A DNA stretch of 64,000 bases, from assembly GCF_003970695.1 (NCBI RefSeq), contig NZ_CP034570.1, positions 1,736,001 to 1,800,000 on the forward strand, read 5' to 3'. The notes below the pieces were generated by a model. It was not told the origin of the DNA, made no database searches, and saw only the letters and a list, made by a program, of their open reading frames with translations. This document shows, piece after piece, positions 24,630 to 54,206 of this stretch (the first letter of the stretch is position 1; each line of letters starts with the position of its first letter). The DNA is from Maribacter sp. MJ134 (GTDB lineage Bacteria; Bacteroidota; Bacteroidia; Flavobacteriales; Flavobacteriaceae). A program made the translations under genes and the position numbers.

Positions 24630-24866
24630 ATGAAAACAATAGCAACCATCTTCTTTATCTTCTTCATCGGAATGACCGCTCAGGCTCAGAACAACACTAC
24701 CGATGTTAAAGTGGAAACGGTTGAAATGACCATAGTAACCGAAACGGCTTACGAGTTGAACTTGGAAACCAAAACGGAGGTTGCTAGATTGTACAAGCAC
24801 AAGAACGCTAGAGTAAAGAAAGCATTATCTTTTACAACAAAGAGAAACAAAGCTAAAATGGCTTAA
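24630..24866 (+). CDS. Small secreted protein, charge-segregated, family copy A
   Basis: 78 aa. A clear Sec signal peptide (MKTIATIFFIFFIGMTAQAQ, cleavage after AQA or AQAQ) leaves a mature part of about 58 residues in two halves: an acidic one (seven Asp/Glu, almost no basic residues up to about 48) and a strongly basic one with RLYKHKNARVKKALSF and a Lys/Arg-rich end KMA. There is no Cys and no lipobox. Two near-identical copies (51566, 53970) differ at one residue (Lys to Thr after ARV), and two diverged ones lie at 36189 and 50695. Function unknown. The layout of an acidic spacer before a cationic tail recalls peptide precursors, which is only an idea. Confidence 0.85.
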   Translation: MKTIATIFFIFFIGMTAQAQNNTTDVKVETVEMTIVTETAYELNLETKTEVARLYKHKNARVKKALSFTTKRNKAKMA

Positions 24867-25039
24867 TCTTATACCGACTGACTGTCGCGATTTATGTGCC
24901 CATTATTTCATCCTCCTGCCAGAGTTTTGGAAAATGGGCATTTTAATTTTAAGAAATAGAAACCTTCATTTATCCTACTATACCGCTTAGTTAAAAACGT
25001 GCCATGACCATTCAATAGGTTTACAAAGGTTTAGTACAT

Positions 25040-25558
25040 TTGGGTAATCTTGAAGTGTATCTAGTGTATCGTTTTTTTGCCCGTATAAAATTTCTGCTTT
25101 CAGCAACCAATCAACATGGCGTACACTCCCCATTTATATATCAATTTGTTACGAAGGGTTTATATAGGAAGGGGAATAAAAACTATTCCAAAACGGAAAA
25201 CGTACTTTTGAAATGCATATCCTATTTTGATTACTCCCAAATAGGGCTCGTAAATGATTCCAATGCCTTAAAAATAAAATTGAACGCCCTATTTCCGGGA
25301 CTCCGTTATACTAACATTCCGTTTGACCTGATTTATGCTGACCTATCCAGCAAAACTTTTAAAACAATAGCAAAACAGAACATTCATAATAATAGTATGC
25401 TGTTGATAGAGGGCATCTATCAGAATAAGGGTCGAACCGCGCAGTGGTGTACCATAAAAAATTTAAAAGAAGTCACCGTTTCTTTGGATTTATATTATTG
25501 CGGAATTGTCTTTTTCAGAAGGGAGCAGGCAAAAGAGCATTTTAAAATTCGGATTTAA
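25040..25558 (+). CDS. Shortened methyltransferase-like protein
   Basis: 172 aa. The ends resemble a class I SAM-methyltransferase-like family of flavobacteria: near the start SATNQHGVHSPFIYQFVTK, and near the end a segment with TVSLDLYYCGIVFFRREQAKEH. The middle, where the glycine-rich SAM-binding motif should be, is short and has no GxGxG; the protein is about 60-70 residues shorter than I would expect for the family. It may have lost catalysis or be decaying. The start is TTG at 25040, as no ATG is available before the conserved segment. It follows repeat copy A by 173 bp and precedes a one-segment membrane protein. Confidence 0.65.
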   Translation: MGNLEVYLVYRFFARIKFLLSATNQHGVHSPFIYQFVTKGLYRKGNKNYSKTENVLLKCISYFDYSQIGLVNDSNALKIKLNALFPGLRYTNIPFDLIYADLSSKTFKTIAKQNIHNNSMLLIEGIYQNKGRTAQWCTIKNLKEVTVSLDLYYCGIVFFRREQAKEHFKIRI

Positions 25559-25589
25559 TCCACTAATTTTAAACAAGACAAGTAATTAT

Positions 25590-25730
25590 ATGAATAATAG
25601 CATTTATATTGTACTCGGCGTAGTTTTTGCGATTTATATCGGTATTACCATTACAAATAGGAATAAATCAAGGGCTCGAAAATCCAAAAAATTTATGGAC
25701 AATTATGAGCGAAAGGACAAAAAGGATTAG
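25590..25730 (+). CDS. Small single-span membrane protein, 46 aa
   Basis: ATG at 25590; an upstream in-frame start at 25506 would overlap the preceding gene by 53 bp and adds sequence that is out of character. One hydrophobic segment (about residues 4-21, IYIVLGVVFAIYIGITI) is followed by a highly basic tail (RNKSRARKSKKF, RKDKKD). N-out/C-in topology is likely. Function unknown. It starts 32 bp after the previous gene on the same strand. Confidence 0.6.
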   Translation: MNNSIYIVLGVVFAIYIGITITNRNKSRARKSKKFMDNYERKDKKD

Positions 25731-25812
25731 TCAAAGGCAAATATTTCAAAAATGATGATCATATCGGCCCATATTTTTATTTGAGCTTGATATTTGAACT
25801 TGAATTTATTCA

Positions 25813-26388
25813 ATGAAAATATATACAAAAACAGGAGATTCAGGAACTACCGCGCTATTTGGGGGTACTAGAGTTCCAAAACATCACATCAGAATTGAGA
25901 GTTACGGTACTGTGGACGAACTCAACTCTTGGTTAGGGCTTATTAGAGACCAGGAAATAAATACACAGAGCAAAGACCAGCTAGCAAAAATTCAGGACAA
26001 ATTGTTTACCCTAGGGGCTATATTAGCGACCGATCCTGAAAAAGCCATCTTAAAGAATGGCAAAGAGCGGCTAAATATTCCCAAGATAAGTGTATCCGAT
26101 ATTGAAATACTAGAGAACGCTATCGACGAAATGGACGCTACCCTACCACAAATGACCCATTTTATTCTTCCAGGGGGCCACACAAGTGTGTCATACTGTC
26201 ATATAGCGCGTACCGTATGCAGACGCGCAGAAAGAATGGCGACCCTTCTTTTCGAAAATGAACCCTTTGACGAGGAGGTCCTCTCCTATTTGAACAGACT
26301 TTCGGATTACCTCTTTGTATTGGCACGAAAATTGTCCAAAGAATTAAAGGCCGAAGAAATTAAATGGATACCTGAAAAAAAGGACTAA
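25813..26388 (+). CDS. Corrinoid adenosyltransferase, PduO type
   Basis: A 191-aa ATP:cob(I)alamin adenosyltransferase that makes adenosylcobalamin. The N-terminus has the ATP-binding motif KIYTKTGDSGTTALFGG, then YGTVDELNSWLG; the C-terminal half carries the second ATP/cobalamin signature ARTVCRRAERM (about 137-147) and LNRLSDYLFVLARK. It is complete and of normal length. Together with MeaB at 61276 it points to an adenosylcobalamin-dependent methylmalonyl-CoA mutase in this organism, although the mutase is not in the window. Confidence 0.95.
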   Translation: MKIYTKTGDSGTTALFGGTRVPKHHIRIESYGTVDELNSWLGLIRDQEINTQSKDQLAKIQDKLFTLGAILATDPEKAILKNGKERLNIPKISVSDIEILENAIDEMDATLPQMTHFILPGGHTSVSYCHIARTVCRRAERMATLLFENEPFDEEVLSYLNRLSDYLFVLARKLSKELKAEEIKWIPEKKD

Positions 26389-26468
26389 TAAATTCCTAAT
26401 TTCTTCGTTATCAATTTATCAATGCAAAAATTATGTTGATAACTGGATTGAAATAATTACATTTTATC

Positions 26469-26498
26469 TTGGTCATTTACTTTTAAAAATTATTTTTG
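26469..26498 (+). promoter_or_regulatory. Bacteroidetes-type promoter of the DUF2795 gene
   Basis: TTG at 26469-26471, a 19-bp spacer and TATTTTTG at 26491-26498 match the Bacteroidetes primary-sigma consensus (TTG, 19-21 bp, TAnnTTTG). The ATG of the DUF2795 gene is 26 bp further on. Confidence 0.75.
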
Positions 26499-26524
26499 CA
26501 AAAAATTAAAATCAAACTATTACA

Positions 26525-26749
26525 ATGTATTGGACATTAGAATTAGCATCTTATTTAAGTGATGCACCTTGGCCGGCAAGTAAAGATGAGTTAATCGACT
26601 ACTCTATTAGAACCGGTGCGCCTTTAGAGGTTGTAGAAAACTTACAATCTATGGAGGAAGAAGGCGGCGAGATTTACGAATCAATCGAAGAAATCTGGCC
26701 AGACTATCCTACAGAAGAAGACTACCTCTGGAACGAGGATGAATATTAA
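26525..26749 (+). CDS. DUF2795 domain protein, 74 aa
   Basis: A small, very acidic cytoplasmic protein (about 20 Asp/Glu in 74 residues) of the DUF2795 family, with the family pattern LASYLSDAPWPASKDELIDY and RTGAPLEVVENLQSM, then an acidic aromatic tail (WPDYPTEEDYLWNEDEY). It has its own promoter (26469) and terminator (26778), so it is an independent and probably well expressed unit. Function unknown; in flavobacteria I recall it next to secA or cobO-like genes, as here. Confidence 0.85.
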   Translation: MYWTLELASYLSDAPWPASKDELIDYSIRTGAPLEVVENLQSMEEEGGEIYESIEEIWPDYPTEEDYLWNEDEY

Positions 26750-26777
26750 TATTTAGATATCACAATTACTACTAAAA

Positions 26778-26800
26778 GTCTCCTCGGAGGCTTTTTTTTT
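26778..26800 (+). terminator. Intrinsic terminator after the DUF2795 gene
   Basis: GTCTCC-TC-GGAGGC stem with one G-T pair, followed by nine T residues, 29 bp after the stop codon. Confidence 0.88.
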
Positions 26801-26962
26801 ATGTAATTTTGGCAGTCGATTAGGGAATTTTAGTTCAAAATACATACTGGAATACCTTTTGTTGCACTCAGATGTCGGTTTTAATTACTGACTGCAAATA
26901 ATTTATTGTAATAAGGTCGGAAGTTTATAGTTCCGATAAACGCAATACTAATAGAAAAATTT

Positions 26963-30325
<3,363 letters not shown>

Positions 30326-30388
30326 ACCTGTAGCTTTCAAATCAAAGTTCACAGCCTTTTTAAAACAGAACTGCAACTATTTAGTGCA

Positions 30389-30415
30389 AAGCGACCTATT
30401 CAGGTCGCTTTTTTT
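30389..30415 (+). terminator. Intrinsic terminator after secA
   Basis: Perfect 8-bp stem AGCGACCT/AGGTCGCT with a 4-nt loop (ATTC) and a run of seven T, about 65 bp after the secA stop. Confidence 0.92.
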
Positions 30416-30552
30416 ATATGAAACAATCATGGTGATGCTGTATTTTACAAGGGTACATTTAACTTTTTATAAAGTTTTTTGAAATATGCCCAAAACATAC
30501 CTAGCTTTACAATAGAAAAATGTTCCTGAAACCGAGAAATTAATTTGATTCT

Positions 30553-31767
30553 ATGAACGATTTTAATATCGACCAAGAACGCTTAAAAGATAAGATCAAT
30601 CTTATCTTGAAAGTGAATTATGTTTCTAGCGCACTAGCGATTGTTTTTGGCTTTGCTTGCTTTTTTATTCTAGACATCAAGGAGATTATTCCCTATGTGT
30701 TCGTCATCTTTGGTCTGCTCAACTTGGCCAATACCTTGTTCTTTAGAAAACATCAAAGCCTCACATCTACCTACAACATTTCCTCCATATTGGCACTGTT
30801 AAGCGCCTTCATCATTACGATATATTCTGGCGGCATCAATAGCTCCTTTATCTTTACCTTGGCACTAATTGTTTTTGCCGGTTATGTGACCACCCGGCAA
30901 TACGGTCAGATTTATCTGAATTTAATCTTCTTTTTGGTCATTCTGATTTTTTCACAAAGCATTCCTGACTTTTCCTTTACAGAAAATGTTATTCCAGAAA
31001 AATCCAGAAATCTTTTTAATCTATTTTCCATCCTCTTTTCCGTCTACTTACTAGGAAACATTTTTGGTAAAAACTTACTGAGAACGCACCATGCCCTGTA
31101 TAAGTCAAAACAGCAATTAATGGAGCAAATGGAGGAAAAGGAAACCCTTTTAAAAGAAGTACACCATAGGGTAAAGAACAATTTACAAACTGTATCTAGC
31201 TTGTTAAGCCTTCAATCTAGAAATGTTGAGGAAGCTCGGATGAAAACCTTGCTCAAGAGCACGCAGAACCGAGTTATCTCCATGGCCATGGTTCATGAGA
31301 TGCTCTATATGAGAAAGGATATAGCGCACATAGAGTACAAATCCTATGTACAGGAACTAAGTGAATATCTCATACGTTCTATCAAAGGGTTGGATAGTAA
31401 GGTGCATTTAAAAATTGATATTCCCGATATAAAATTAGGTATTGATACGGCCATACCTTTAGGACTGCTCATTAACGAGGCGGTAACCAATGCGCTTAAA
31501 TATGGCTTTTCAGATGAAGAGGAAGGAGAGATTTATATCGCCCTAAAGAAAGAACTGAACAAGCAGTACGTGCTTAATATAGGGGATAATGGAGTTGGTT
31601 TCCCGGAAACGGTCAACTACAAAAATTCTAAATCCTTAGGATTAAAACTCATACATAATCTTACGCGGCAATTAAAAGGTACCATTCAAAGAGATAGCAG
31701 TAAAAAAGGTACCAACTATATTATTAAATTTCAAGAAGTAAAGCAGCAATTGGCACCAGCTATGTAA
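30553..31767 (+). CDS. Membrane-bound sensor histidine kinase (HisKA_2 type)
   Basis: 404 aa. Five or six membrane segments in residues 23-170 form the input part, a short coiled coil follows (about 180-200), then the HisKA_2 dimerisation box with the phospho-acceptor in EVHHRVKNNLQTVSSLLSLQ (His204 or 205), and the HATPase domain: N box NEAVTNALKYGF, G1 GDNGVGFP and the G2-like GLKLIHNLTRQL. No response regulator lies beside it, so it is an orphan kinase. The HisKA_2 class often pairs with LytTR or receiver-only proteins. The signal is unknown; a sensor domain outside the membrane is lacking, which suggests sensing within the membrane. Monocistronic. Confidence 0.9.
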   Translation: MNDFNIDQERLKDKINLILKVNYVSSALAIVFGFACFFILDIKEIIPYVFVIFGLLNLANTLFFRKHQSLTSTYNISSILALLSAFIITIYSGGINSSFIFTLALIVFAGYVTTRQYGQIYLNLIFFLVILIFSQSIPDFSFTENVIPEKSRNLFNLFSILFSVYLLGNIFGKNLLRTHHALYKSKQQLMEQMEEKETLLKEVHHRVKNNLQTVSSLLSLQSRNVEEARMKTLLKSTQNRVISMAMVHEMLYMRKDIAHIEYKSYVQELSEYLIRSIKGLDSKVHLKIDIPDIKLGIDTAIPLGLLINEAVTNALKYGFSDEEEGEIYIALKKELNKQYVLNIGDNGVGFPETVNYKNSKSLGLKLIHNLTRQLKGTIQRDSSKKGTNYIIKFQEVKQQLAPAM

Positions 31768-31881
31768 TCAAAGGATGTTCATTTTGTCAACTTCACAATA
31801 AAACATGTCAAGTATTTCACTAGGGCAAATAATCCTAGGATATTACTTATATTTAAACGGCTAACTCAAAAAAACCGTTTC

Positions 31882-34401
31882 ATGTTAAAAAAATTGCTTC
31901 TCGTTTTTTTTCTTTCTTGTACTACCGTATATGGACAAGACTACTTCTTTGAAAAATTTAAACCCTTTAACACTGCAGTTCCTTCCCCGGAAGAATTTTT
32001 AGGTTACGGCATTGGCGAGCATCATACACGGCACGACTTAATTGTGGCCTATTTAGAAAAGCTGGCAGAAGTATCCGACAGAGCTACGATACAGAAGTAT
32101 GGCAAAACCCATGAAGGACGTAAATTGGTGATGCTCACCATTTCTTCGCCCAAAAATCATTCCAATCTAGCCGCAATCAAATCGGCTCACTTGGCCTTTA
32201 CGGATCCATCTCAATCAGTATCCAATTATGGAGATGTTCCCATTTTCATCAATTTGGCGTACAACGTACATGGCAATGAACCTTCTAGCTCAGAAGCGGC
32301 GTTATTAGCGGCCTATACCTTTGTGGCCTCTGAAAATCCTGAAATCCTGAACTATATTGACAACGCGGTAATTTTTATTGACCCAACGATTAATCCGGAC
32401 GGCCGAGACCGGCATACGCAATGGGCAAATACCTATCAAGGTTCTCCCGAGGTATCGGACCCGCAAGACGCGGAACATAACGAGTATTGGCCAATGGGCA
32501 GAACCAATCATTATTGGTTTGATTTGAATCGCGACTGGTTATTGGGGATACATCCTGAAAGTAGAGGCAAACTAAACTGGTACCATCAATGGTATCCTAA
32601 CGTCGTCACCGATTTTCATGAAATGGGAACACAAAGCAGTTATTTCTTTGAACCTATGAAAACCAACGGTTCCCTCAACCCTATTATGCCCAAGGAGAAC
32701 TACGAAGACTTGAACACACTTTTCGGTAATGAGTTTGCCAAGGCGTTGGACAGTATTGGTTCCCTCTATTTTACAAAAGAAGTGTTCGATGGTACTTATC
32801 CGGGTTATGGTTCTTCATATCCGGACCTGCAAGGAGGTCTAGGATTGTTATTCGAGCAGGCGAGCTCTAGAGGACACCGCCAAACTACGGCCTTTGGGGA
32901 AATCACTTTCGCCTTTACCATCAGAAATCAATATACCTCTAGCATTACCACGGTAAAGACCGCCGTGAACAACAAAGCGTATATGCGAAAATACCAGCAG
33001 CAATTCTTTAAAAGTGCCCTGGCCAATGCGGGAAAAAGTAAAATAAAAGGATACACTTTTGGAGATGCTCACGATCAAAATCGGACAAAAGCATTTGTAG
33101 ACAAACTATTACTGCATAAGATTGATGTTTATAAGGCAGGGGACCGCTATGTGGTTCCCACCCGGCAACCGCAGTACAGAATGGTGCAAACCATGTTCGA
33201 AACATATGAAAAGTATAGAGACAGCGTATATTACGATGCCTCTGCCTGGTCCGTTGCCAACTTCTACAATATGAAGTATAAAACAACGAACACACTGAAT
33301 TTAGGCGATAAAATTACCACGACCGATAATTTGGTCAAGGTAATTCCTGTCCAAAAATCGGATTACGCCTACGTAATGGACTGGGATGATTACAATGCGC
33401 CGGCCGCACTATACCACTTACAACAAAAAGGGATTGTAGCTTCTTCCGCTGCGAAACCTTTTACGGTAAAAACAGGAAATACCACCAAGAATTTTAATTA
33501 TGGTGCAGTGCTTATCCCTGTTAGCCTCCAAAAAATGGATGCCAATGGCATCTTTAACCTTTTAAAAGAGGTTCAAAATAAATTTGAAGTTCCCATCGTC
33601 GCCGTTAATACGGGACTGAATTTAGGAGGAGTTGATATGGGCAGTCGTTTTATTACCCCTATAAAAAAGACCAAGGCCGCAATGCTCATCGGTGATGGCG
33701 TACGTTCCTACGAAGCTGGAGAAGTTTGGCACTTACTGGATACAAGAGTACATATGCCAATTACCAAAATACCCATGCGTAATTTTGACCGTGCTAATTT
33801 TGATAAATATAACGTAATGGTCATGGTTTCCGGCCGGTACAATCTATCGGAGAAGCAACAGGACAAAATAAAGGATTGGACGAGTAAGGGCAATACGTTG
33901 ATTACCATAGGAACTGCCAGCAAATGGGTCATTGACAAGAAATTAGTAAAGGAGAAACTTACCGAATCAGAAAAGGATTCCACTATAACAGTAGTGCAAA
34001 AACCTTACGTAGATGCAGGTGAAAATATTGGAAAGGAAAGTGTGGGCGGCGTCATCTTAAAGGCCGATATAGACCATACCCATCCGCTAGCCTTTGGATA
34101 TCATGATGAGAGTATTCCTGTTTACAAGAACAATACCGTGTGGCTATCTCCCAGTGATAATGCTTATGCTACCGTGGCAAAATATAGTAAAGATCCCCAT
34201 ATCGATGGATTCCTGACCAAAAAGAATATGGAGGAAAACGTAAAGCAATCCGCTTCACTGATTGTCAGCAAATTAGGAAGAGGTCGCGTTGTGCTTTTTG
34301 CGGACAATCCCAACTTTAGGGGGTCTTGGTACGGAACCAATCGGTTATTCCTGAACGCCCTTTTCTTAGGAGATAAGATAAATGTTCCTACCGAAAATTA
34401 A
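31882..34401 (+). CDS. Secreted zinc carboxypeptidase, family M14
   Basis: 839 aa: signal peptide (1-18, ending VYGQ), an M14 peptidase domain at about 35-370 and a long C-terminal region of about 450 residues without recognised fold except for an Ig/GATase-like stretch around 560-640. Zinc ligands: the HxxE in YNVHGNEPSSSEAAL and the His in VTDFHEMGTQSSYFFEP; the catalytic Glu is in GLLFEQASSRGH. The DLNRDW string for substrate binding is present. Such proteins are expected to release C-terminal amino acids from peptides outside the cell. It is followed 40 bp later by a secreted amidohydrolase, and the pair is probably cotranscribed for peptide scavenging. Confidence 0.92.
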   Translation: MLKKLLLVFFLSCTTVYGQDYFFEKFKPFNTAVPSPEEFLGYGIGEHHTRHDLIVAYLEKLAEVSDRATIQKYGKTHEGRKLVMLTISSPKNHSNLAAIKSAHLAFTDPSQSVSNYGDVPIFINLAYNVHGNEPSSSEAALLAAYTFVASENPEILNYIDNAVIFIDPTINPDGRDRHTQWANTYQGSPEVSDPQDAEHNEYWPMGRTNHYWFDLNRDWLLGIHPESRGKLNWYHQWYPNVVTDFHEMGTQSSYFFEPMKTNGSLNPIMPKENYEDLNTLFGNEFAKALDSIGSLYFTKEVFDGTYPGYGSSYPDLQGGLGLLFEQASSRGHRQTTAFGEITFAFTIRNQYTSSITTVKTAVNNKAYMRKYQQQFFKSALANAGKSKIKGYTFGDAHDQNRTKAFVDKLLLHKIDVYKAGDRYVVPTRQPQYRMVQTMFETYEKYRDSVYYDASAWSVANFYNMKYKTTNTLNLGDKITTTDNLVKVIPVQKSDYAYVMDWDDYNAPAALYHLQQKGIVASSAAKPFTVKTGNTTKNFNYGAVLIPVSLQKMDANGIFNLLKEVQNKFEVPIVAVNTGLNLGGVDMGSRFITPIKKTKAAMLIGDGVRSYEAGEVWHLLDTRVHMPITKIPMRNFDRANFDKYNVMVMVSGRYNLSEKQQDKIKDWTSKGNTLITIGTASKWVIDKKLVKEKLTESEKDSTITVVQKPYVDAGENIGKESVGGVILKADIDHTHPLAFGYHDESIPVYKNNTVWLSPSDNAYATVAKYSKDPHIDGFLTKKNMEENVKQSASLIVSKLGRGRVVLFADNPNFRGSWYGTNRLFLNALFLGDKINVPTEN

Positions 34402-36188: not shown

Positions 36189-36455
36189 TTAGGCCAATTT
36201 TGGGCTGTCTTTCTTTGTGCTAAAAGATAAAGCCTTCTTTACCCTAGAATTTGGGTAGCGATATAAGCGCGCTAAAGCTTGTGTGTCAATAAACGGATTA
36301 TTTTCCGAGAGGTCAATATCAGGAGTGCTAATAACCAAAACAACACCCATTTTAAAAGTGTCCACTTTACCATTGTTTTCCGTGTTTTGTGCGATGGCCA
36401 TAGTACCTAAAAAAAGAACTAATACTAAGGTTAAAACAGATTTCATATTATTCAT
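36189..36455 (-). CDS. Small secreted protein, diverged family member D
   Basis: 88 aa (or 85 with the internal ATG at 36446, MKSVLTLVLVLFLGTMAIAQ, a better signal peptide). The mature middle contains several acidic residues, and the tail reads ARLYRYPNSRVKKALSFST followed by KKDSPKLA, which aligns without gaps with the tails of copies A-C (RLYK-KNARVKKALSF). It is otherwise unlike them, so this is an older paralogue. Its leader has the TTCAAC and CCGTTCATC blocks found before the others. Convergent with the amidohydrolase gene, with 161 bp between. Function unknown. Confidence 0.75.
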   Translation of the reverse strand: MNNMKSVLTLVLVLFLGTMAIAQNTENNGKVDTFKMGVVLVISTPDIDLSENNPFIDTQALARLYRYPNSRVKKALSFSTKKDSPKLA

Positions 36456-36506
36456 TTGGGTTACCTAAAGATAACCTCAAGAACAGACTAGAACCCTTGC
36501 TATGTC

Positions 36507-36554
36507 GTTGAAATACAGACTTTTTCGCTTATCTAAAAAATGATAGATGAACGG
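36507..36554 (-). promoter_or_regulatory. Conserved upstream blocks of the small-peptide family (copy D)
   Basis: On the minus strand CCGTTCATC at 36554-36546 and TTTCAACG ending at 36506-36513, both matching the blocks before copies A-C, but set farther apart. They lie 50-100 bp before the start codon. Confidence 0.3.
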
Positions 36555-36743
36555 GCTAAAAGCATCGACAAAGACAATTTACCCGTTAAACTTTTCAACG
36601 ATTAGGCTTGTATTTTATCGGAGAAAAACTAACACTTAGAATCGAGTTTTATAATAAAATTGGAGTTTATATCTATCAATAACTAGGAATCCAGAATAAA
36701 TCGGTGGTGGAAAGTTGTAGAAAACCGTTGCTTGCCGAACAGG

Positions 36744-44698: not shown

Positions 44699-44712
44699 GC
44701 ACCTGTTATAAT

Positions 44713-44749: not shown

Positions 44750-45063
44750 TGTTCCCATCAGCAAAAAGAACTATAAAGCCAAATCCTTACATCAATGGTC
44801 TTGGAATAGTGTTTTAATAGATTAAAGAATTATTTGCTATCTCTTAGCTCAGTTCTTTTTAATTTGGAATCTCTTTTGAAGTAATAGTATTATCAGAAAG
44901 AATAAGAGAGAGAATTAAAGTTAATTTAGGAAGACTCATGTCTATTTATAACTTTTTTTCTATCTGGTTTTCAGTTTTTTAACTTTACTAGTATATTAAG
45001 TGTTGGTCAAAGTTTAGTTATCATAATAAGACTGTAAATGTACATGACTAAACATAGACTTCT
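44750..45063. other. Intergenic region, nothing recognised
   Basis: 314 bp, AT-rich, between the ECF operon terminator and the Rid gene end. A 26-codon minus-strand frame at 44859-44939 begins with a signal-like stretch (MSLPKLTLILSLILS) and might be a relic of a secreted protein; I do not call it a gene. No repeat or hairpin was found. Confidence 0.4.
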
Positions 45064-45534: not shown

Positions 45535-45566
45535 CTTATTTACCAATTGATAATGGGGTATTATTT

Positions 45567-46451: not shown

Positions 46452-46681
46452 TTTATGAGTATTGCTTTGCTTTTTTACATCGGTCTCGTAGGACCGTCTA
46501 CAGGTTAATATAAGTGTATCCGAAGGGCTAGAACTTGTTTTGAAGTTCAAATCGGATTCAACTCGCTCTTCCCCTGGTAAAAGGGTAGTTCGTATCACTG
46601 TAATTATGACTATACATGGTTATCGCACATTTTTATTGATCGGTCTAATTTTCTAAATGTTTTCTTTGTTTAAGTAATAAA

Positions 46682-49231
46682 TTAACTTGCCTCCTTGCGC
46701 AATACTTGTAACGGTGGACTTTTTAAAACACTGCTGCTATTAGACATCCCTATGGCCAATACCAACAATGTCACCCCCGGCAAAACCACCAAAAACGGCA
46801 CCAAAGAAGGTACAAAGGAAGTATCAAAAACAAAATAGGCCAATAATTGGCTACTGACCAAGGACAGCAAAATGCCAACCCCGCTGCCCAAGAGTCCTAA
46901 ATACAGATATTCCAGAGCGGTAATTTTTAGGATTTGATGGCTTTTGGCCCCTAGGGTACGCAACAGCACACTTTCACGTATTCGTTGATATTTACTATTA
47001 CGTACGGCACCTATAAGTACAATGATACCGGTAAGCATACTAAAAAAGGCCATAAAACTAATGACCCAAGCTATTTTATCCAGAATGCCCTCTACAAGGG
47101 TAATCACCTGTCGCAAGTCTAAAATGGACACATTGGGGAACCGCTGCACCAATTCGCGCTGTAAACTCGCCGAAGCCTTCTTACTGGGCGCATTGGTCGT
47201 CAATACGTGAAATTGCGGGGCCTTTTCCAAAACTCCAGTAGGGAAGACGATAGAGAAATTCAGTTGCATTCTACCCCAATCCACTTGGCGAATGCTACCC
47301 ACCACAGTTTCCATAAGCATTCCTTGCACATTAAATAGTAAGGTATCTCCCAAAACCACTTGCGCATCCCGGGCCACATTATCCGACAAGGAAATAGGTA
47401 TAGGTTGGTCGGGTCCTGCCTTGGCCCCAAAGTTGCCCGATACCAGTTTTTCGGAACCGATCAAGGAATCCCGGTACGTGACACGGAACTCATGGTTTAG
47501 AATCCATTTATTGATTCCGGTCGTAGTGTCCAACCGAATGGCGTTCACGGAGCGTTCTTTAATCTTTTCCAAGCGCATGGTAATAATCGGAATATTTTCC
47601 AAAACAGGCATGCCTTTTGGGGTAATTGTATTGGCGACGGCCAATTTTTGTTCGGTCTGTACATCGAAAAGAATCATATTGGGACTCTTGTTGCTAGATT
47701 CCAACGAAGTTTTTGCTAGTAAAAAATCTTTGGTAAAGTAGAGCGTGCTGATTAAAAAAGTACCGATACCGATGGCCAAAATGAGTACCGCAGTCTGATT
47801 GTTGGGCCGAAAAAGGTTCAATAGACTCTGCCGAGACGTGAAGGTCCATGACTTTGGAAATAGGCGTTTTATCAGCTTCATAAATCCAACGGCCACTCCT
47901 CCCAAAATGGCGAAGGTTACCAGTACCACAGTTACAAAACCAAGGGCAAATTTAAAATTACCCAACAGCCAATAGGCAAATAGAAAAACAAAAAGCACGA
48001 TGACGGCGAGCACGCCAAAATTGGCCCATCTCGATTTTTCGCCCGTACGCTCTTGAACGCGTAAGACGGCTAATGGCGATACGTACCAAGTATTGATAAG
48101 AGGCGAAAGCGCAAAGAGTACCGACATGATAATACCTAATAACAGCCCGGTGATAATGGCGGCATACGAAGTGCTTATGGTGACGTCAAAGGGCAAAAAC
48201 TCTTGCAATAGCAAGGGAAAGGATTGTTGCAGCAGCAAACCGGCCAAAGTGCCTATCAACCCACCTAGAAGGCCCATGCCCGCGATTTGAAGTAAGAAGA
48301 TAAGAAAGGTCTGCTTCCTAGATGCTCCCAAGCATTTTAGGATAGCCACCGCCTTAAGTTTTTCTTTAATATAAATATGAACACTGCTGGCAATACCTAC
48401 ACAGCCGAGTAGCAAAGCGATGAACGCTACCAGATTTAAAAACCGACCTACATTGTCGTACCGTCTTCCCAAGCGTTGACTAGTAGCGGTGTGCGTGTCC
48501 ATATCGGCGTTCTGTTCATCCAACAAAGGATCCACGGTTTCGTCCAGCGCCTCCAAATCGGCATCGGGGTCAAGGAAATAGTAATTGTATGCCAACCTAC
48601 TCCCCTTTTGCAATAACCCGCTAGGCTGCATAAAGCGGTACGGCACCATAACCGGTGGCGCAACGGATGTTCCGATTCCCGTACTTCCCGGAGCGGTAAC
48701 CAAAGACCCGATGATGGGGAACGTTAGGGTACCCAGTTTAACACTATCCCCTGGTTTCAGGTTAAACTGTAGCATTGCAGTAGCGTCTACCAAAGCTCCT
48801 CCCCTTTCTTGATAGGTTGTTGCAGCATCGGCAGGTTCGGTTTCCAATGCGCCATAGAAAGGAAAATCACCTTCTACCCCACGTACTTGCACCAATTTTG
48901 TCGCACCGTTCTTGTTAAAAGCGGCCATGGAGGCAAACTTCACTTCCATGGCATCGGCGCCACCTAAGGAATCCATCAGCTGTTGCACGCGGGCATTGGC
49001 CGGCTGGTTACTGTCGATCAAATAGTCCGCACCCATTAAGGCTTTGGACTGTAATCCTATATTCTCTTTTAAATTCTGACTGAACGATTGTATGGACACC
49101 ACAGCGGCAATACCCAGTAAAATGGACGCCATAAAAAGAAGTAAACGCTTGCCGCTGGCCTTACCGTCTCGCCAGGCCATTTTAAACAGCCAGCTTATCG
49201 GCGTTTTCGAAGTATGCCTAAAATCACTCAA
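46682..49231 (-). CDS. ABC transporter permease, FtsX/YbbP type
   Basis: 849 aa. First membrane segment at about 30-50 after a cytosolic LFKMAWRDGKASGKR, large periplasmic MacB-PCD-like domain (about 55-255), three membrane segments (about 262-390) with one FtsX core, further segments around 400-455, a second periplasmic domain (about 495-705), and a second FtsX core to the end. This double-FtsX layout with about 10 segments matches YbbP. It overlaps the ybbA-like ATPase gene by 4 bp (ATGA). In E. coli ybbA-ybbP lies beside tesA, as here. The role is not settled; membrane-lipid or envelope stress handling is likely. Confidence 0.88.
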   Translation of the reverse strand: MSDFRHTSKTPISWLFKMAWRDGKASGKRLLLFMASILLGIAAVVSIQSFSQNLKENIGLQSKALMGADYLIDSNQPANARVQQLMDSLGGADAMEVKFASMAAFNKNGATKLVQVRGVEGDFPFYGALETEPADAATTYQERGGALVDATAMLQFNLKPGDSVKLGTLTFPIIGSLVTAPGSTGIGTSVAPPVMVPYRFMQPSGLLQKGSRLAYNYYFLDPDADLEALDETVDPLLDEQNADMDTHTATSQRLGRRYDNVGRFLNLVAFIALLLGCVGIASSVHIYIKEKLKAVAILKCLGASRKQTFLIFLLQIAGMGLLGGLIGTLAGLLLQQSFPLLLQEFLPFDVTISTSYAAIITGLLLGIIMSVLFALSPLINTWYVSPLAVLRVQERTGEKSRWANFGVLAVIVLFVFLFAYWLLGNFKFALGFVTVVLVTFAILGGVAVGFMKLIKRLFPKSWTFTSRQSLLNLFRPNNQTAVLILAIGIGTFLISTLYFTKDFLLAKTSLESSNKSPNMILFDVQTEQKLAVANTITPKGMPVLENIPIITMRLEKIKERSVNAIRLDTTTGINKWILNHEFRVTYRDSLIGSEKLVSGNFGAKAGPDQPIPISLSDNVARDAQVVLGDTLLFNVQGMLMETVVGSIRQVDWGRMQLNFSIVFPTGVLEKAPQFHVLTTNAPSKKASASLQRELVQRFPNVSILDLRQVITLVEGILDKIAWVISFMAFFSMLTGIIVLIGAVRNSKYQRIRESVLLRTLGAKSHQILKITALEYLYLGLLGSGVGILLSLVSSQLLAYFVFDTSFVPSLVPFLVVLPGVTLLVLAIGMSNSSSVLKSPPLQVLRKEAS

Positions 49232-49917
49232 GATGCCGTGGTAATTTCGTTAGCCATTATTTTACCTCCTTTTAATCGTAATATATGCTGCGTAAGTTGT
49301 GCTAGGTCCAAATCGTGGGTAACAATGACCAAGGTAGTTCCCATCTCCTTGTTTAGGTCGAATAGTAGTTTTATGACCTTTTCACCGGTTTCCTCGTCAA
49401 GATTACCGGTCGGTTCGTCTGCAAATAAGATATCCGGCTTATTGGAAAAAGCCCTTGCCAGTGCTACACGTTGCTGTTCTCCGCCGGATAATTGGGAAGG
49501 ATAATGATCATATCTGTTCCCTAACCCTACTTTCGTTAACAAATCCATGGCGTCTTTGGTCGCGTGTGAAACTCCTTGCAGTTCTAAAGGTACCGCCACG
49601 TTTTCCAAGGCCGTTAGGGTGGGTAAGAGTTGAAAATCCTGAAAAATAAAACCTACTTTCTGATTGCGTAACAGCGCACGTTCATCTTCGTTGAGCTCAC
49701 TCAATTCCTGTCCGCATAATGCTACGGAACCCGTATCCAATTTATCAAGACCGGCGCAAAGCCCTAAAAGGGTGGTCTTTCCACTACCAGATGGGCCCAC
49801 AATAGCGAAAGTGGCACCCTTTTCAATAGAAAAATTAATGTCGTCTAAAACAGTGAGTTCCTTAGAACCGCTTGTGTAGATTTTCTTTAGGTTACGGACG
49901 TTTAATATCTTTGTCAT
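49228..49917 (-). CDS. ABC transporter ATP-binding protein, YbbA/LolD type
   Basis: 229 aa, a single ABC domain: Walker A GPSGSGKTT (about 39-47), Q-loop VGFIFQDFQLLPTLTALENV, signature QLSGGEQQRVALARAF, Walker B ILFADEPTGNLD and H-loop VTHDL. The sequence is that of the MacB/LolD/YbbA group, which works with FtsX-type permeases; its partner is the next gene. Divergent from the SGNH hydrolase gene with 61 bp between, so a shared regulatory region is likely. Confidence 0.92.
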   Translation of the reverse strand: MTKILNVRNLKKIYTSGSKELTVLDDINFSIEKGATFAIVGPSGSGKTTLLGLCAGLDKLDTGSVALCGQELSELNEDERALLRNQKVGFIFQDFQLLPTLTALENVAVPLELQGVSHATKDAMDLLTKVGLGNRYDHYPSQLSGGEQQRVALARAFSNKPDILFADEPTGNLDEETGEKVIKLLFDLNKEMGTTLVIVTHDLDLAQLTQHILRLKGGKIMANEITTAS

Positions 49918-49978
49918 AAATTATTTTGTACAAGGCAACAAAATAAGGCAATGATTTCGACTTTTAGAAGTATAGCAC

Positions 49979-50698
49979 ATGGGCAAAGTATTAAAGTTTA
50001 GTTATTTTTTTATCGCAATATTGATAAGCAGTTGTGGCGAAAATCCGAAACAGAAGACCGTTGCATCTCCCACCACGAAAAATACCGAAGCTAATGTGGA
50101 GGTAAGCTCCGAAGGGAACAAAACAATTCTTTTCTTCGGAAACAGTTTAACCGCGGCCTATGGTTTGGAGACGGAAGAGGGTTTTCCCAACAGAATACAG
50201 GAGAAGATAGATTCCCTTGGGTTGAACTATACCGTAATTAATTCTGGCCTAAGCGGAGAAACCACGTCTGGCGGTTTAAATAGATTGGATTGGGTATTGA
50301 ATCAAAAAGTAGACATCTTTGTACTGGAACTAGGAGCAAATGACGGATTACGTGGAATTCCATTAACTGAAACCCGTACTAATCTGCAGAAAATGATTGA
50401 CTTGGTCCGCGCGAAAAACGAACATACGCAAATAGTCCTTGCGGGAATGCAAATTCCACCCAATATGGGAGAAGCATATACCACAGAATTCCGGAACATC
50501 TTTCCAAACCTGGCCGAAAAGAATGCCATTTCGCTTATTCCGTTCTTACTGGAAGGAGTCGCAGGGAACCCGGACCTGAATCTGGAAGATGGGATTCATC
50601 CCACTGCCGAAGGTCAAAAAATAGTTGCACAAAACGTTTGGGAAGTGCTACAAGAAATAATCCAACCTGTTGAAGAAACAGAGATGGTGCTCGATTAA
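49979..50698 (+). CDS. SGNH-type lysophospholipase/arylesterase, TesA-like lipoprotein
   Basis: 239 aa. Lipoprotein signal (FIAILISSC, Cys19) and an SGNH hydrolase domain of about 185 residues. Block I reads GNSLTAAYG (Ser nucleophile; Asn for the usual Asp in GDSL), block II is SGLSGETTSGGL, block III LGANDGLRG and block V DGIHPTAEG with the Asp/His pair. All four catalytic residues are present. TesA of E. coli is periplasmic and soluble, this one is membrane-anchored. Divergent from ybbA-ybbP as in E. coli. Its stop codon overlaps the stop of the next, convergent gene (TTAA at 50695-50698). Confidence 0.92.
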   Translation: MGKVLKFSYFFIAILISSCGENPKQKTVASPTTKNTEANVEVSSEGNKTILFFGNSLTAAYGLETEEGFPNRIQEKIDSLGLNYTVINSGLSGETTSGGLNRLDWVLNQKVDIFVLELGANDGLRGIPLTETRTNLQKMIDLVRAKNEHTQIVLAGMQIPPNMGEAYTTEFRNIFPNLAEKNAISLIPFLLEGVAGNPDLNLEDGIHPTAEGQKIVAQNVWEVLQEIIQPVEETEMVLD

Positions 50699-50934
50699 AC
50701 CAATTTAACATCTCTTTTTCTTATTTGAAAGGTTAAGGCTCTTTTGATTCTGGAATGTTTTAGGATAAAAATCCCGGTTACCGCTGGGAGCTGCTCCTTG
50801 ACCAATTTAGTTTGGTGAACAGTTTTGACTACAGGCATGGAAATAGGGTTTACCTTTATTTCTGCTTTTGTATTCTGGGCTTGGGCAAAAGCCCCCATAC
50901 AGATAACTAGTACTAAAATAAGAATAGATCGCAT
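50695..50934 (-). CDS. Small secreted protein, diverged family member E
   Basis: 79 aa with a signal peptide (MRSILILVLVICMGAFAQAQ) and a tail HSRIKRALTFQIRKRDVKLV that aligns gap-free with the tails of the other members (R-[VI]-K-[KR]-A-L-[ST]-F). The acidic middle is weaker here, with Lys in places. The mature protein has no Cys. Its stop overlaps that of the tesA-like gene by a shared TTAA. The leader carries GTTGAA/GATGA blocks as in the other copies (51014-51041). Function unknown. Confidence 0.72.
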   Translation of the reverse strand: MRSILILVLVICMGAFAQAQNTKAEIKVNPISMPVVKTVHQTKLVKEQLPAVTGIFILKHSRIKRALTFQIRKRDVKLV

Positions 50935-51565
50935 TGTAGGTTATTTGGGATATTGATAACTACCACATGTTCCTTTTCATTTGATTTGAATCGATAATAA
51001 GTCCGGTTTTACCGTTGAAATGCAAAATTTTCGATGAGTGGCACAATTTGACTCAAAAATTCCTACAAACACTCTTGTTTTTAATCCGATTTTTTAAACA
51101 CTTTATCGATTTTATAAGCTTTTTCCTACAATATTTTTTTTGAAGTCGTGTCGATTCGCTGTATTAATAGGTAAAAAAACTTGTATTTAACTAGAGAAAG
51201 TTGTGCTTACACGACGGATATAAAGCGTATAATTCAATATCCTTAAGGGCTTTTTCCATTCCTATTCGCAGCTATGGAAGCATTCTGAAAATTTGATGAC
51301 CAGCATGCAATAGGTCAAAACCTATACCTTATAAAAGAGTAGCTACGGCGTAATTGGAATAAAGTGAATGAGGCCTAAAATAATAGGGCATGTATTTACT
51401 ACCCGATTGAAATTATCTTTTGAATTGATTGGTCCTTTTAACAGGAACAAGGACATACCTCCTCTTTGGTTCAGCTGTTAGGGATATACCTACAGTTAGT
51501 AATAGGTTCTTGATACTAGTGCTAATGAAATTCTTCATAATCGTTACTATTTATCTTGTTAGGTA
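50935..51565. other. Long intergenic region between two small-peptide genes
   Basis: 631 bp of AT-rich DNA, the longest noncoding gap in the window. It holds the leader of member E (blocks at 51014-51041). The rest contains T-rich tracts and no ORF over 40 codons that looks real. No RNA gene was recognised. As it lies between two related genes, it may be a remnant of earlier copies, but I see no further RVKKALSF-like frame. Confidence 0.4.
51014..51041 (-). promoter_or_regulatory. Conserved upstream blocks of the small-peptide family (copy E)
   Basis: On the minus strand CCACTCATC (51041-51033) and, after about 10 bp, CATTTCAAC (to 51014), the counterparts of CCGTTCATC and CACTTCAAC before copies A-C. 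The spacing is 19 bp start to start here and 21 bp there. Confidence 0.35.
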
Positions 51566-51983
51566 TTAAGCCATTTTAGCTTTGTTTCTCTTTGTTGTAA
51601 AAGATAATGCCTTGGTTACTCTAGCGTTCTTGTGCTTGTACAATCTAGCAACCTCCGTTTTGGTTTCCAAGTTCAACTCGTAAGCCGTTTCTGTTACTAT
51701 GGTCATTTCAACCGTTTCAACTTTAACATCGGTAGTGTTGTTCTGAGCCTGAGCGGTCATTCCGATGAAGAAGATAAAGAAGATGGTTGCTATTGTTTTC
51801 ATGACTTGCGTTTGTTACACTATTATAACGGGTGCAAGTGTACTTCGGAGGGTGGTCGTTCGCCGAAAAACCCATAATACTCGGTATCTGACAGCAATCC
51901 GGTTGAAGTGTAAAAATCAATCGATGAACGGCACGCACACCAAAAACACCTTACCGAAAAAAGATGCTTTTAAACGTAGATTT
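51565..51983 (-). repeat. Long repeat copy B with small-peptide gene
   Basis: Minus-strand copy of the unit at 24449. It contains the hairpin (51942-51966, with one wobble pair), the blocks GTTGAAGTG (51902-51910) and GATGAACGG (51923-51931) on the plus strand, the dyad and the gene. Copy C lies 2 kb away in the same orientation, so B and C are direct repeats around the gene at 52240. On the distal side of the hairpin there is no gene to terminate, so the hairpin is a part of the unit. Confidence 0.9.
51566..51802 (-). CDS. Small secreted protein, family copy B
   Basis: 78 aa, identical to copy A except Thr for Lys in the tail (ARVTKALSF for ARVKKALSF) and identical to copy C. Most of the base differences among the three genes are synonymous (for instance ACC, ACA or ACG for the same Thr), which indicates that the protein is under selection. 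Signal peptide, acidic half and basic half as in copy A. It is transcribed alone, away from the gene at 52240. Confidence 0.85.
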   Translation of the reverse strand: MKTIATIFFIFFIGMTAQAQNNTTDVKVETVEMTIVTETAYELNLETKTEVARLYKHKNARVTKALSFTTKRNKAKMA

Positions 51984-52239
51984 GAGAAAAATTTCGTTTC
52001 ATGAGCGCTTATTATTTAAATGCAAGTGACCTTAAGTAATTAACCTGGAACAAGTTCACTGGGTATAAAAAGGAGTATAACATTATCTTCTTCATAAGCC
52101 TCGTAGCATTATAAACCTCGATTATCGGAAAAAGCGTTACCATTAGCATTTGTACCTGATGCGTTAATACTCTAAACTGAACAGGCTATTTTTGTAGGAT
52201 CTGTTATACAAGTAACGTTACATACTCAATTGAACACCT
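51984..52239. other. Leader region of the FAD/NAD(P)-binding protein gene
   Basis: 256 bp between repeat B and the next start codon. Apart from the promoter candidate at 52164-52194 I see nothing in it; the open frame that crosses from repeat B (51765-52004) is a shadow. Confidence 0.4.
52164..52194 (+). promoter_or_regulatory. Candidate promoter of the FAD/NAD(P)-binding protein gene
   Basis: TTA (for TTG) at 52164, a 20-bp spacer and TATTTTTG at 52187-52194, close to the Bacteroidetes consensus. The ATG follows 46 bp later. Confidence 0.5.
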
Positions 52240-53973
52240 ATGCGAAAAATTGCCATCATCGGAATCGGACCTCGGGGACTATATGCATTAGAACAATTCT
52301 TAAATGCCTGTTCTAAGGAGCAAAAGCTAAAAACATTTCAGCTACTTCTTTTCAATTATTCGCAATATCCCGGGGCTGGTGAGGTCTGGAATCCAGAACA
52401 ACCACACACCAATTGGATGAATATCTCAGAGCGGGCCTTAAGGAATTTACCAGGAAGGACAGCCTGTGAACTGGACAACTTAAAAATACCTGCATTTCCA
52501 TCTTATAGGGAATGGAGTGCTAAAAAAGCCACGAATGCCACCCCAGAAGCAATGGATACTTTTCCGCCCCGTGCTAAGATGGGCAACTACCTTCATCAAA
52601 GATTTCAATCTATCATAGACATTCTAGTGACTAATAAGACAGCGGTATTCAATAAGGCAAAAATTCAAACCTTAGTCAATGAGAATAATGGTTTCCTGAT
52701 AAGTGACGTAGAAAAAAAAATCTACAGCGCTGATGAAGTTTTGCTTACCATAGGGCATCAGCCAATAGAAACCTCTGAACAACTACAGAATTGGATGGCA
52801 CATACGGTGCAAACAAAGAAAGCACTTCTTTTTAAAAAAGCCTATCCCGTTTCAAAGATTACGGATACAGAAGAAATACATAACAACAGTATTATTGGTT
52901 TAAGAGGTTTTGGTCTTGCCACCATAGACGTCATAAGAGCTTTAACCATTGGCAAAGGTGGCCAATTTAAGTTAATCAATGAACGGACAAGGGAGGTGGA
53001 ATTTATTACTACGGACATGGTTCCCAGAAAACTGGTTCCCTTTTCCTTGGATGGTCTTCCATTAGCCGCAAAACCTATAAGTTCTAAGGTGGATGAAAAA
53101 TTTGAACCCACGGCATCGGAAATTAAAAGCTTCGGAAAAGAAATATCCAAAGCCTTATCGGCAGAAACCAAAACGACGGATATCACCTTCTTAACAGTAG
53201 CCATTGCCCGAATTGCATCAAGAGTTTATGAGGATATATTAAAAGAACATGGCAACGCTAAAACCAATCGTGAAGAAATAGGTGATAGTATCAAAAGTTG
53301 GTTGCATAATCCCAAATTTGAGCATTCATTAATTTTTTCAAAGACCAAAAGTGTATCGGAAACAATATCCGCCTTTATCGCAATGGCCACAGGAACTCGT
53401 GTACCCTCATTGGATTATTGCGTTGGTCAGGTTTGGCGCCACTGCCAGCCTACCCTTTACAAGGTGTTTTCACATGCCCAACTCAAGGATGAAGTTATTG
53501 CTGATATTATTGCATTGGATGAACGTATTAAACGCTATTCCTATGGACCGCCCGTGGAAAGCATGCAACAATTACTAGCACTTCAAAAAGTGGGCATCTT
53601 AGATCTTGATTTTATTAACGATCCTTACATAAAACTTGTAGCTAGTGGCTGGGAACTACAATCAAACAATACAGTAATTAGCTGCAATGTTATGGTGAAT
53701 TGTGTTTTAGATGGACCAAAGCTGTTGAAAGTAAAAGCAAACTTGGTGAAAAATTTACTACAGGACGATTTAATAAAACCTTTACATACCGCACTGGGAA
53801 TTGATACCCGAACGGATGGCCGTGTACGTTCAGAGGAAAACAAGACAATTCCCATTGCCGTACTGGGCCGACTCTCCAAAGGAAGTGTTATTGGTGTTGA
53901 TGCTATATTAGAATGTTTTGGTCCAAGGACAAGGGATTGGGCCAAGGCAGCGGTAGAAAGAATGTACGCTTAA
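52240..53973 (+). CDS. FAD/NAD(P)-binding protein
   Basis: 577 aa. An N-terminal Rossmann dinucleotide fold (KIAIIGIGPRGLYALEQFL, residues 3-21, a variant of GxGxxG) followed by the pattern PGAGEVWNPEQPHTNWMN typical of the FAD-NAD(P)-binding (PF13454-like) family. A second nucleotide site is likely near residues 215-235 (IIGLRGFGLATIDVIRAL). The family includes proteins found with siderophore or amino-acid N-hydroxylating enzymes, but no such genes are here and the substrate is unknown. It lies alone between two direct repeats, and its TAA stop shares bases (TTAA) with the stop of the convergent small-peptide gene C. Confidence 0.82.
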   Translation: MRKIAIIGIGPRGLYALEQFLNACSKEQKLKTFQLLLFNYSQYPGAGEVWNPEQPHTNWMNISERALRNLPGRTACELDNLKIPAFPSYREWSAKKATNATPEAMDTFPPRAKMGNYLHQRFQSIIDILVTNKTAVFNKAKIQTLVNENNGFLISDVEKKIYSADEVLLTIGHQPIETSEQLQNWMAHTVQTKKALLFKKAYPVSKITDTEEIHNNSIIGLRGFGLATIDVIRALTIGKGGQFKLINERTREVEFITTDMVPRKLVPFSLDGLPLAAKPISSKVDEKFEPTASEIKSFGKEISKALSAETKTTDITFLTVAIARIASRVYEDILKEHGNAKTNREEIGDSIKSWLHNPKFEHSLIFSKTKSVSETISAFIAMATGTRVPSLDYCVGQVWRHCQPTLYKVFSHAQLKDEVIADIIALDERIKRYSYGPPVESMQQLLALQKVGILDLDFINDPYIKLVASGWELQSNNTVISCNVMVNCVLDGPKLLKVKANLVKNLLQDDLIKPLHTALGIDTRTDGRVRSEENKTIPIAVLGRLSKGSVIGVDAILECFGPRTRDWAKAAVERMYA

Positions 53974-54206
53974 GCCATTTTAGCTTTGTTTCTCTTTGTT
54001 GTAAAAGATAATGCCTTCGTTACTCTAGCGTTCTTGTGCTTGTACAATCTAGCAACCTCCGTTTTGGTTTCCAAGTTCAACTCGTAAGCCGTTTCCGTCA
54101 CTATGGTCATTTCAACCGTTTCAACTTTAACATCGGTAGTGTTGTTCTGAGCCTGAGCGGTCATTCCGATGAAGAAGATAAAGAAGATGGTTGCTATTGT
54201 TTTCAT
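53970..54206 (-). CDS. Small secreted protein, family copy C
   Basis: 78 aa, same protein as copy B. The coding differences from copy B are synonymous. The dyad before the ATG is also conserved, with one central base changed (TATCATA instead of TATAATA). Its stop codon (53970-53972) overlaps the stop of the FAD/NAD(P)-binding protein gene. It stands downstream of the M23 peptidase gene in the same direction, separated from it by the repeat's own terminator. Confidence 0.85.
   Translation of the reverse strand: MKTIATIFFIFFIGMTAQAQNNTTDVKVETVEMTIVTETAYELNLETKTEVARLYKHKNARVTKALSFTTKRNKAKMA

What the first reader, a model, noticed from the sequence alone, without database searches (positions are those of the whole stretch)
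24630..54206. Five-member family of small secreted proteins with an acidic middle and a cationic RxKKALxF tail
Genes at 24630, 36189, 50695, 51566 and 53970 code for 78-88-aa proteins with a Sec signal peptide, acidic centre (A-D) and a basic tail that aligns gap-free: R-[VI]-K-[KR]-A-L-[ST]-F-x-x-[KR]-[KR]-x-x-x-K-[LM]-[AV]. Three copies are near-identical, two are old paralogues. Five in 64 kb, each with its own leader and none in an operon with recognisable partners, points to an amplified system. Possible roles: secreted cationic peptides, precursors whose acidic part masks a basic peptide, or surface proteins. The role is unknown and this is the strongest candidate for an undescribed system here.
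Basis: partly seen in the sequence, partly recalled or inferred. Interest (0 to 1): 0.78.

Follow-up and report, generated by a model that had tools for sequence, protein, structure and literature searches.

The report
Signal-controlled exported peptide family
Marine Maribacter-type bacteria carry several copies of a tiny exported protein ending in a fixed positively charged tail; nearly all copies sit behind the same multi-part switch sequence of a signalling type known from other bacteria, and some phages of these bacteria carry the tail too, so this looks like an undescribed signal-controlled cell-envelope peptide system.

Summary
The five genes are real and are the only copies in this 4.0-Mb Maribacter genome. 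The family is in 36 of 36 genus genomes searched and, at E<=1e-8, in 71 of 397 Flavobacteriaceae genomes. No Pfam, NCBIfam or PDB family describes it. (1) Nearly every copy has direct-repeat boxes (about TTYRTCGA) at -126/-105/-86/-65, spaced 21/19/21: 68 of 74 upstreams in other genera against 2 of 406 controls. In 36 genomes, 95 of 101 strong promoter-model hits precede a family gene; six lie at contig ends. Layout and core match LytTR/AlgR-type sites. (2) One LytTR response regulator co-occurs with the family (71 of 71), as does a six-TM-like HisKA_2 kinase (69 of 71) that lies in the window at 30553. A single clade could explain this, and 12 of 15 LytTR genes were not tested. (3) Phages of Maribacter and Cellulophaga encode homologues; one has a perfect 15-bp repeat at 21-bp spacing in its promoter, others are tail-only without signal peptide. 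Best reading: a dedicated two-component output of exported basic-tail peptides acting at the envelope. The target is unknown.

The parts
24630..24866 (+). family gene, copy A (78 aa)
36189..36455 (-). family gene, copy B, diverged class (88 aa; 85 aa from second Met at 36446)
50695..50934 (-). family gene, MRxIL class (79 aa)
51566..51802 (-). family gene, near-identical to copy A (78 aa)
53970..54206 (-). family gene, near-identical to copy A (78 aa)
24504..24572 (+). four-box LytTR-like array of copy A (-126/-105/-86/-65 from ATG)
   Evidence: score 29/32; model hit E 1.3e-18
36504..36572 (-). four-box array of copy B (counted from Met at 36446; middle gap 18)
   Evidence: score 24/32; model hit E 2e-6
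50991..51038 (-). three-box array (boxes 2-4) of the 50695 gene
   Evidence: CTCATCGA/TTCAACGG/ATTATCGA at -104/-85/-64, four-box score only 17/32; not among the model hits listed
51860..51928 (-). four-box array of the 51566 gene
   Evidence: score 29/32; model hit E 3.6e-19
54264..54332 (-). four-box array of the 53970 gene
   Evidence: score 29/32; model hit E 1.5e-18
24448..24867 (+). duplicated unit (promoter plus gene), 98% like 51565-51984 (inverted)
51565..51984 (-). duplicated unit
53965..54387 (-). duplicated unit, 96% like 24449-24871
30553..31767 (+). HK1: HisKA_2/HATPase_c histidine kinase, six TM-like segments in residues 17-172; candidate input kinase
   Evidence: Pfam; hydropathy; co-occurrence; neighbourhood

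Best explanation
This is the dedicated output of a LytTR-type two-component system. Each gene is its own transcription unit behind two tandem LytTR dimer sites (boxes 1-2 and 3-4, 21 bp within a pair, 19 bp between pairs). The most likely regulator is the receiver-LytTR protein at G000:C1:1441921-1442664, fed by the TPR-HisKA_2 kinase beside it and by the six-TM-like HisKA_2 kinase HK1 (window 30553). When the signal arrives, many copies are switched on at once. Each product is exported by Sec, loses its signal peptide after AxA, and leaves about 58 residues: a mostly disordered, usually acidic linker plus a fixed basic C-terminal module of about 25-28 residues (VARLYKFKNSRVKKALSF...K[LM]A, free C-terminus). 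That module is the working part and acts at the cell envelope, probably by binding an acidic partner. Shown by computation: the family, its box arrays, fixed C-terminus, copy number, purifying selection, co-occurrence and phage homologues. Inferred: that the boxes bind a LytTR protein, which one, that HK1 feeds it, export, and the envelope target.
For: Boxes: layout -126/-105/-86/-65 across genera; 68 of 74 upstreams in 28 loci of genera other than the window's score >=20/32 against 2 of 406 other ORF upstreams; in 1,087,242 positions of the loci from which the consensus was drawn, 44 of 45 hits >=23/32 precede family genes and the last is, by its coordinates, antisense to one, shuffles 0; in 36 genus genomes 95 of 101 hits with E<=2e-6 start a family gene and the other 6 are at contig ends. 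LytTR type: repeats of 9-11 nt with 11-13 nt spacers (PMC4847170, passages); AlgR core CCGTTCGTC/CCGTTTGTC (PMC4064291, passages), present exactly in 4 of 166 upstreams and as CGTT[CT][AG]TC around box 1 in 74 of 166. Regulator: 71 of 71 family-positive genomes have it, 11 of 326 others do; 87-95% identical in the 29 other family-positive genomes of the 57-genome set. HK1 in 69 of 71 and never without the regulator, 76 of 76; nearest retained neighbour in several lineages. Product: 190 of 192 relatives end exactly 13 residues after [LI]xF, 178 of 192 end in Ala, all tails +3 to +12; AlphaFold shows a disordered mature part with a short tail helix, mean pLDDT 67.6. Phages.
Against: The co-occurrence can be one clade's inheritance: regulator without strong family match occurs in 11 genomes with 58-76% identity, so a single gain would give the same table. 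Only 3 of the genome's 15 LytTR genes were tested by distribution; of these L075 also fits 29 of 30 against 0 of 27, though it lacks a Pfam receiver hit. Ten of the 27 'negative' genomes had weak family matches (E 2e-5 to 1e-3) that I set aside. My prediction that regulator+HK1 genomes without the family would hold diverged box-bearing relatives near HK1 failed: none found in the loci fetched. 6 of 74 family upstreams score below 20. The window's 50695 gene has only three boxes and no listed model hit. HK1 is missing at the threshold in 2 of 71 (G115, G260). Tail-only phage proteins lack a signal peptide, which fits poorly with a purely periplasmic target. No expression data. Box binding is by resemblance only.
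Confidence: 0.45

Rival explanations
1. Peptide signalling: the processed basic tail is itself the ligand of the six-TM-like kinase HK1, closing an autoinducing loop like agr/com/pln but in a Gram-negative, with phages carrying decoy or hijacking copies.
For: LytTR-type boxes on the peptide genes, polytopic kinase near them, fixed C-terminus, phage copies.
Against: Tail is highly conserved across genera rather than receptor-specific; HK1 is HisKA_2 whereas LytTR-type QS kinases carry HATPase_c_5 (PMC8895600 passages); no dedicated processing transporter recognised in the 30 Pfam-scanned window proteins.
Confidence: 0.15
2. Antimicrobial or lysis-type cationic peptide: host copies are exported weapons or autolysis factors under LytTR control; phages reuse the tail for host takeover or envelope disruption.
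For: All parsed tails basic; LytTR control of bacteriocins is known in Gram-positives (PMC6193735, passages; PMC8545106, start of abstract in the listing); tail-only phage copies.
Against: Strong conservation and low dN/dS, no immunity gene recognised beside copies, phage genes not beside annotated lysis genes in the stretches looked at.
Confidence: 0.12
3. Envelope structural or protective protein: a dosage-driven coat or chaperone-like periplasmic protein needed in bulk; the two-component system is only a stress switch.
For: Many copies, near-identical copies within a genome, own promoters; disordered charged protein.
Against: No abundance data; the fixed free C-terminus and tail-only phage forms point to a specific binding module.
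Confidence: 0.15
4. The boxes bind another kind of factor, or another LytTR protein, and the regulator/kinase co-occurrence is only shared ancestry.
For: Clade-restricted distribution of several genes including LytTR L075; 12 of 15 LytTR genes untested; binding inferred from resemblance.
Against: 21-bp spacing, AlgR-like core and the separate 21-bp repeat in the phage promoter speak for the LytTR type.
Confidence: 0.25

Closest known systems
LytTR-controlled peptide regulons of Gram-positives (agr, com, pln, HdrRM/BrsRM)
   Same: small exported peptides behind pairs of LytTR-type direct repeats, polytopic membrane sensor
   Different: Gram-negative; Sec signal peptide rather than Gly-Gly or cyclised leader; HisKA_2 kinase rather than HATPase_c_5 type; peptide tail conserved, not strain-specific; stand-alone copies, no processing transporter recognised
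AlgZR (Pseudomonas) and YpdAB (E. coli) LytTR systems
   Same: box core CCGTTCGTC-like (AlgR); two direct repeats (YpdB)
   Different: targets are not a multicopy small-peptide family; YpdB has one target gene, yhjX (PMC4847170 passage)
phrog_26162 (59-aa phage family, function unknown)
   Same: 9 of 26 family members match it, best E 1.8e-5; for the window copy the match lies in residues 46-70
   Different: no function known; phage members seen here lack a signal peptide except in Mollyvirus

Membership tests
LytTR regulon | two direct repeats 9-11 nt with 11-13 nt spacer upstream of promoter | tested here: met
   21-bp start-to-start spacing within both pairs; definition
LytTR regulon | bound by a LytTR response regulator | not testable with these tools
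   15 LytTR genes in the genome; candidate by co-occurrence, 3 of 15 tested
agr/com-type peptide quorum sensing | kinase with HATPase_c_5 | tested here: not met
   HK1 is HisKA_2 plus HATPase_c; domain list of LytTR-type QS kinases from PMC8895600 (passage)
agr/com-type peptide quorum sensing | polytopic membrane sensor region | tested here: met
   six hydropathy segments in residues 17-172; no topology predictor was available
agr/com-type peptide quorum sensing | dedicated peptide processing/export protein next to the peptide gene | tested here: not met
   Pfam of 30 window proteins: the ABC/FtsX pair nearby has no peptidase domain hit
agr/com-type peptide quorum sensing | peptide activates its own kinase | not testable with these tools
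   needs experiment
Class II bacteriocin | adjacent immunity gene | tested here: inconclusive
   none recognised in Pfam-scanned neighbours, but such genes are often unannotated
DUF3316 (PF11777) | score above gathering cut-off 24.4 | tested here: not met
   16.9 bits, E 0.0065
T9SS cargo | conserved C-terminal T9SS domain of about 70-100 aa | tested here: not met
   whole mature protein is about 58 aa; no Pfam hit above cut-off; the size of the domain is recalled

The most novel reading that the evidence does not exclude
A Gram-negative peptide signalling circuit: multicopy exported peptides with a conserved basic C-terminal ligand, a six-TM HisKA_2 kinase and a LytTR regulator whose recognisable strong targets in Maribacter are these peptide genes alone, which phages have captured, both with its promoter type (Mollyvirus) and as a bare intracellular ligand (Callevirus and others), to read or jam the host response.
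Probability: 0.13. Interest if true: 0.88.

Novelty: new variant of a known kind. Interest (0 to 1): 0.62.

Why it matters
It would give Bacteroidota a peptide-producing LytTR regulon of the kind known from Gram-positives, name a likely regulator and kinases, and make it testable in cultured Maribacter strains. That phages of the same hosts carry the tail, in one phage genus with a similar 21-bp promoter repeat, points to a role in phage-host contact.

Tried and rejected
Operon partners: rejected; the Pfam-scanned neighbours are mostly housekeeping genes or unrelated enzymes, and the copies have their own box promoters. Known families: Pfam and NCBIfam gave nothing above cut-off and PDB nothing; the two PDB matches for the phage-plus-host profile at E 0.58 and 1.9 are taken as chance. 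A first regulon pattern had the wrong spacing, missed the window copies, and its hits (32) were fewer than its reversed control (44); discarded. LytTR L072 rejected as dedicated regulator, a match in 53 of 57 genomes. L075 kept as second choice (no receiver hit). Diverged relatives in regulator-positive, family-negative genomes: none found in the loci fetched; the one box hit there (L221, 23/32) lies inside a coding gene. Plasmids: no match with one member as query. LytTR regulator in phages: 58 records, all <60% identity (16 cover at least 80% of the query), none named as a Flavobacteriaceae phage. Fold search was not run because the model is mostly disordered. The 5' dyad near the start codon was not explained.

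Rows dropped or set aside: comparisons with G012_B are out of register and are not used; dS is near saturation in most pairs, and in two comparisons (G000_C2-G012_C1, G012_A-G012_C1) the tail changed more than the middle. One search parsed 192 of 194 unique proteins. Of the 118 genomes with E<=1e-3, 47 weak ones (E>1e-8) were left out of the family-positive set, and 10 of them serve among the 27 negatives. Listings were cut by the tool. One search scans the loci from which the consensus was drawn. The test set is not fully independent: L187 is the same contig as L052, which helped set the consensus.
Full report
Observation. The five ORFs are present at the stated places, align and are the only members in the 4,016,247-base genome (a sixth match at E 0.6 is taken as chance). 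Three are a duplicated unit of about 420 bp (promoter plus gene, 96-98% identical) in both orientations. Two of these read RVTKALSF, so the proposed motif is slightly too strict.

Who has it. 36 of 36 genus genomes and 1 of 1 other-genus family member have a match; 0 of 23 genomes from other families of the order do (E<=0.1, single-protein query). Named hits of one scan of species genomes are Maribacter, Euzebyella, Arenibacter, Lentiprolixibacter, Eudoraea, Croceitalea and less precisely named Bacteroidota. Of 397 Flavobacteriaceae genomes, 118 match at E<=1e-3 and 71 at E<=1e-8. Copies per genome run to 10. The common neighbourhood is secA - HK1 - M14 peptidase - amidohydrolase - [family] - M23 peptidase - msrA: of 60 loci examined, msrA is in 39, a HisKA_2 kinase of the HK1 cluster (which also holds other HisKA_2 kinases) in 35, M23 in 31 and secA in 26; several loci carry the family elsewhere. 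In the window lineage other genes lie between the copies, which is why they are spread over 30 kb.

Product. A 26-member alignment shows a signal-peptide-like start ending AxA, a variable linker and a conserved C-terminus; no signal-peptide predictor was available. Of 192 parsed unique proteins, 190 end exactly 13 residues after [LI]xF, 178 end in Ala, all tails have net charge +3 to +12, and the linker has mean charge -3.1, positive in 11. AlphaFold gives mean pLDDT 67.6, the signal helix, and a short helix at residues 60-66. In usable comparisons dN/dS is about 0.04-0.32. In G000 and G002 the copies at different positions resemble each other more (95-99%) than their positional counterparts in other species; in G012 this is not so.

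Promoters. Upstream of nearly every copy are four direct repeats at about -126, -105, -86 and -65; the MR-starting class mostly keeps three boxes like 2-4, in some cases shifted by a few bases. Controls: in the loci from which the consensus was drawn, 45 hits at >=23/32 against 0 in shuffles, 44 of them before family genes and one antisense; in other genera 68 of 74 against 2 of 406; 95 of 101 strong model hits before family genes and 6 at contig ends. LytTR proteins bind two repeats of 9-11 nt separated by 11-13 nt (PMC4847170, passages), and AlgR binds CCGTTCGTC (PMC4064291, passages). The boxes fit both. Binding itself is inferred.

Regulator and kinases. Of 15 LytTR genes in the genome I tested three by distribution in 30 family-positive and 27 family-negative genomes (17 without a match and 10 with only weak matches). 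L072 matches in 53 of 57. L075 is above 280 bits in 29 of 30 and in 0 of 27, with weaker relatives up to 209 bits in the negatives, and has no receiver hit. L076, an intact receiver-LytTR protein, is in 30 of 30 at 87-100% identity (own genome included) and in 0 of 27, where the best match is 171 bits at 39%. Over 397 genomes L076 (E<=1e-70) is in all 71 family-positive and 11 of 326 others. HK1 is above 250 bits in 30 of 30 against 0 of 27, best 156; over 397 genomes (E<=1e-60) it is in 69 of 71 and never without L076, 76 of 76. HK1 is HisKA_2 with six TM-like segments. L076 lies next to a TPR-HisKA_2 kinase. These distributions follow a clade, so they support but do not prove function.

Phages. 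PHROG family 26162 matches 9 of 26 members. In 50,697 phage records, 15 matched at E<=10: 8 records of Maribacter phages Colly and Molly at E 1e-8, and 7 Cellulophaga phage records at E 0.03-0.3, which are weak alone but share the tail on alignment. Two scans of viral contigs gave 5 and 6 loci, partly the same. Mollyvirus homologues have a signal peptide; Callevirus and three other contig types are 37-50 aa, tail-only, without one. Upstream of the Colly_1 gene a 15-bp repeat recurs at exactly 21 bp (0 of 20,000 base shuffles reach 14, 3 reach 10). The same pair, 11 of 12 matched, precedes Colly1_9, annotated as a matrixin metalloprotease, which starts with a lipoprotein-like signal. The core CGTTTAACG occurs three times in the first 5.3 kb and nowhere in the next 49.7 kb; the remaining part of that 124-kb genome was not searched. 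The core differs by one base from CGTTTATCG of many host boxes. PMC8776804 (passages only) describes these phages and mentions a zinc-dependent metallopeptidase in Molly; I saw no mention of the peptide gene in those passages.

Literature. Nine searches of the held library showed no description of this family or regulon in the rows listed (searches listed 10 of 63 and 8 of 79); most subscription journals are not covered.

Verdict. The family and its promoter code are solid. A LytTR two-component switch is the best reading (0.45 for the whole statement). What the tail does is open.

Noticed in passing
upstream of family genes, last 42-45 nt before ATG: An inverted repeat overlaps the presumed -10/5' region with sequence that differs between lineages: stems >=7 bp in 18 of 92 upstreams against 1.6% of shuffles. 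Could be an RNA hairpin or a second operator.
   Followed up: partly
L160-L163, L167, L168, L174 (seven other Maribacter-genus genomes): Weak box arrays lie at the 3' end of a tsaE-like gene that follows a PorX-like gene (both recognised from memory) and point towards that 3' end, with no long same-strand ORF behind them.
   Followed up: no
L164, L165, L166 (three Maribacter-genus genomes): Weak box arrays precede a gene that looks like PorP/SprF of type IX secretion (name from memory).
   Followed up: no
L171, L172, L173, L176 (ends of draft contigs): Draft Maribacter contigs break right at family promoters, so copy numbers in drafts are probably too low.
   Followed up: partly
L239:2888-5067: A viral contig has a tail-only peptide gene, a 99-aa ORF and a GroEL-like gene in a row.
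   Followed up: no
G118:C2:372650-383963: In a genome without a listed family match the L076-type regulator and an HK1-type kinase lie about 10 kb apart.
   Followed up: partly
window 11751-16714: Two adjacent large minus-strand genes (796 and 826 aa) share an 84% identical 207-bp stretch.
   Followed up: no
genomes G209, G143, G160, G221, G233: HK1 relatives with open frames of only 294-304 aa match the kinase half alone, so the membrane part is replaced or shortened.
   Followed up: no
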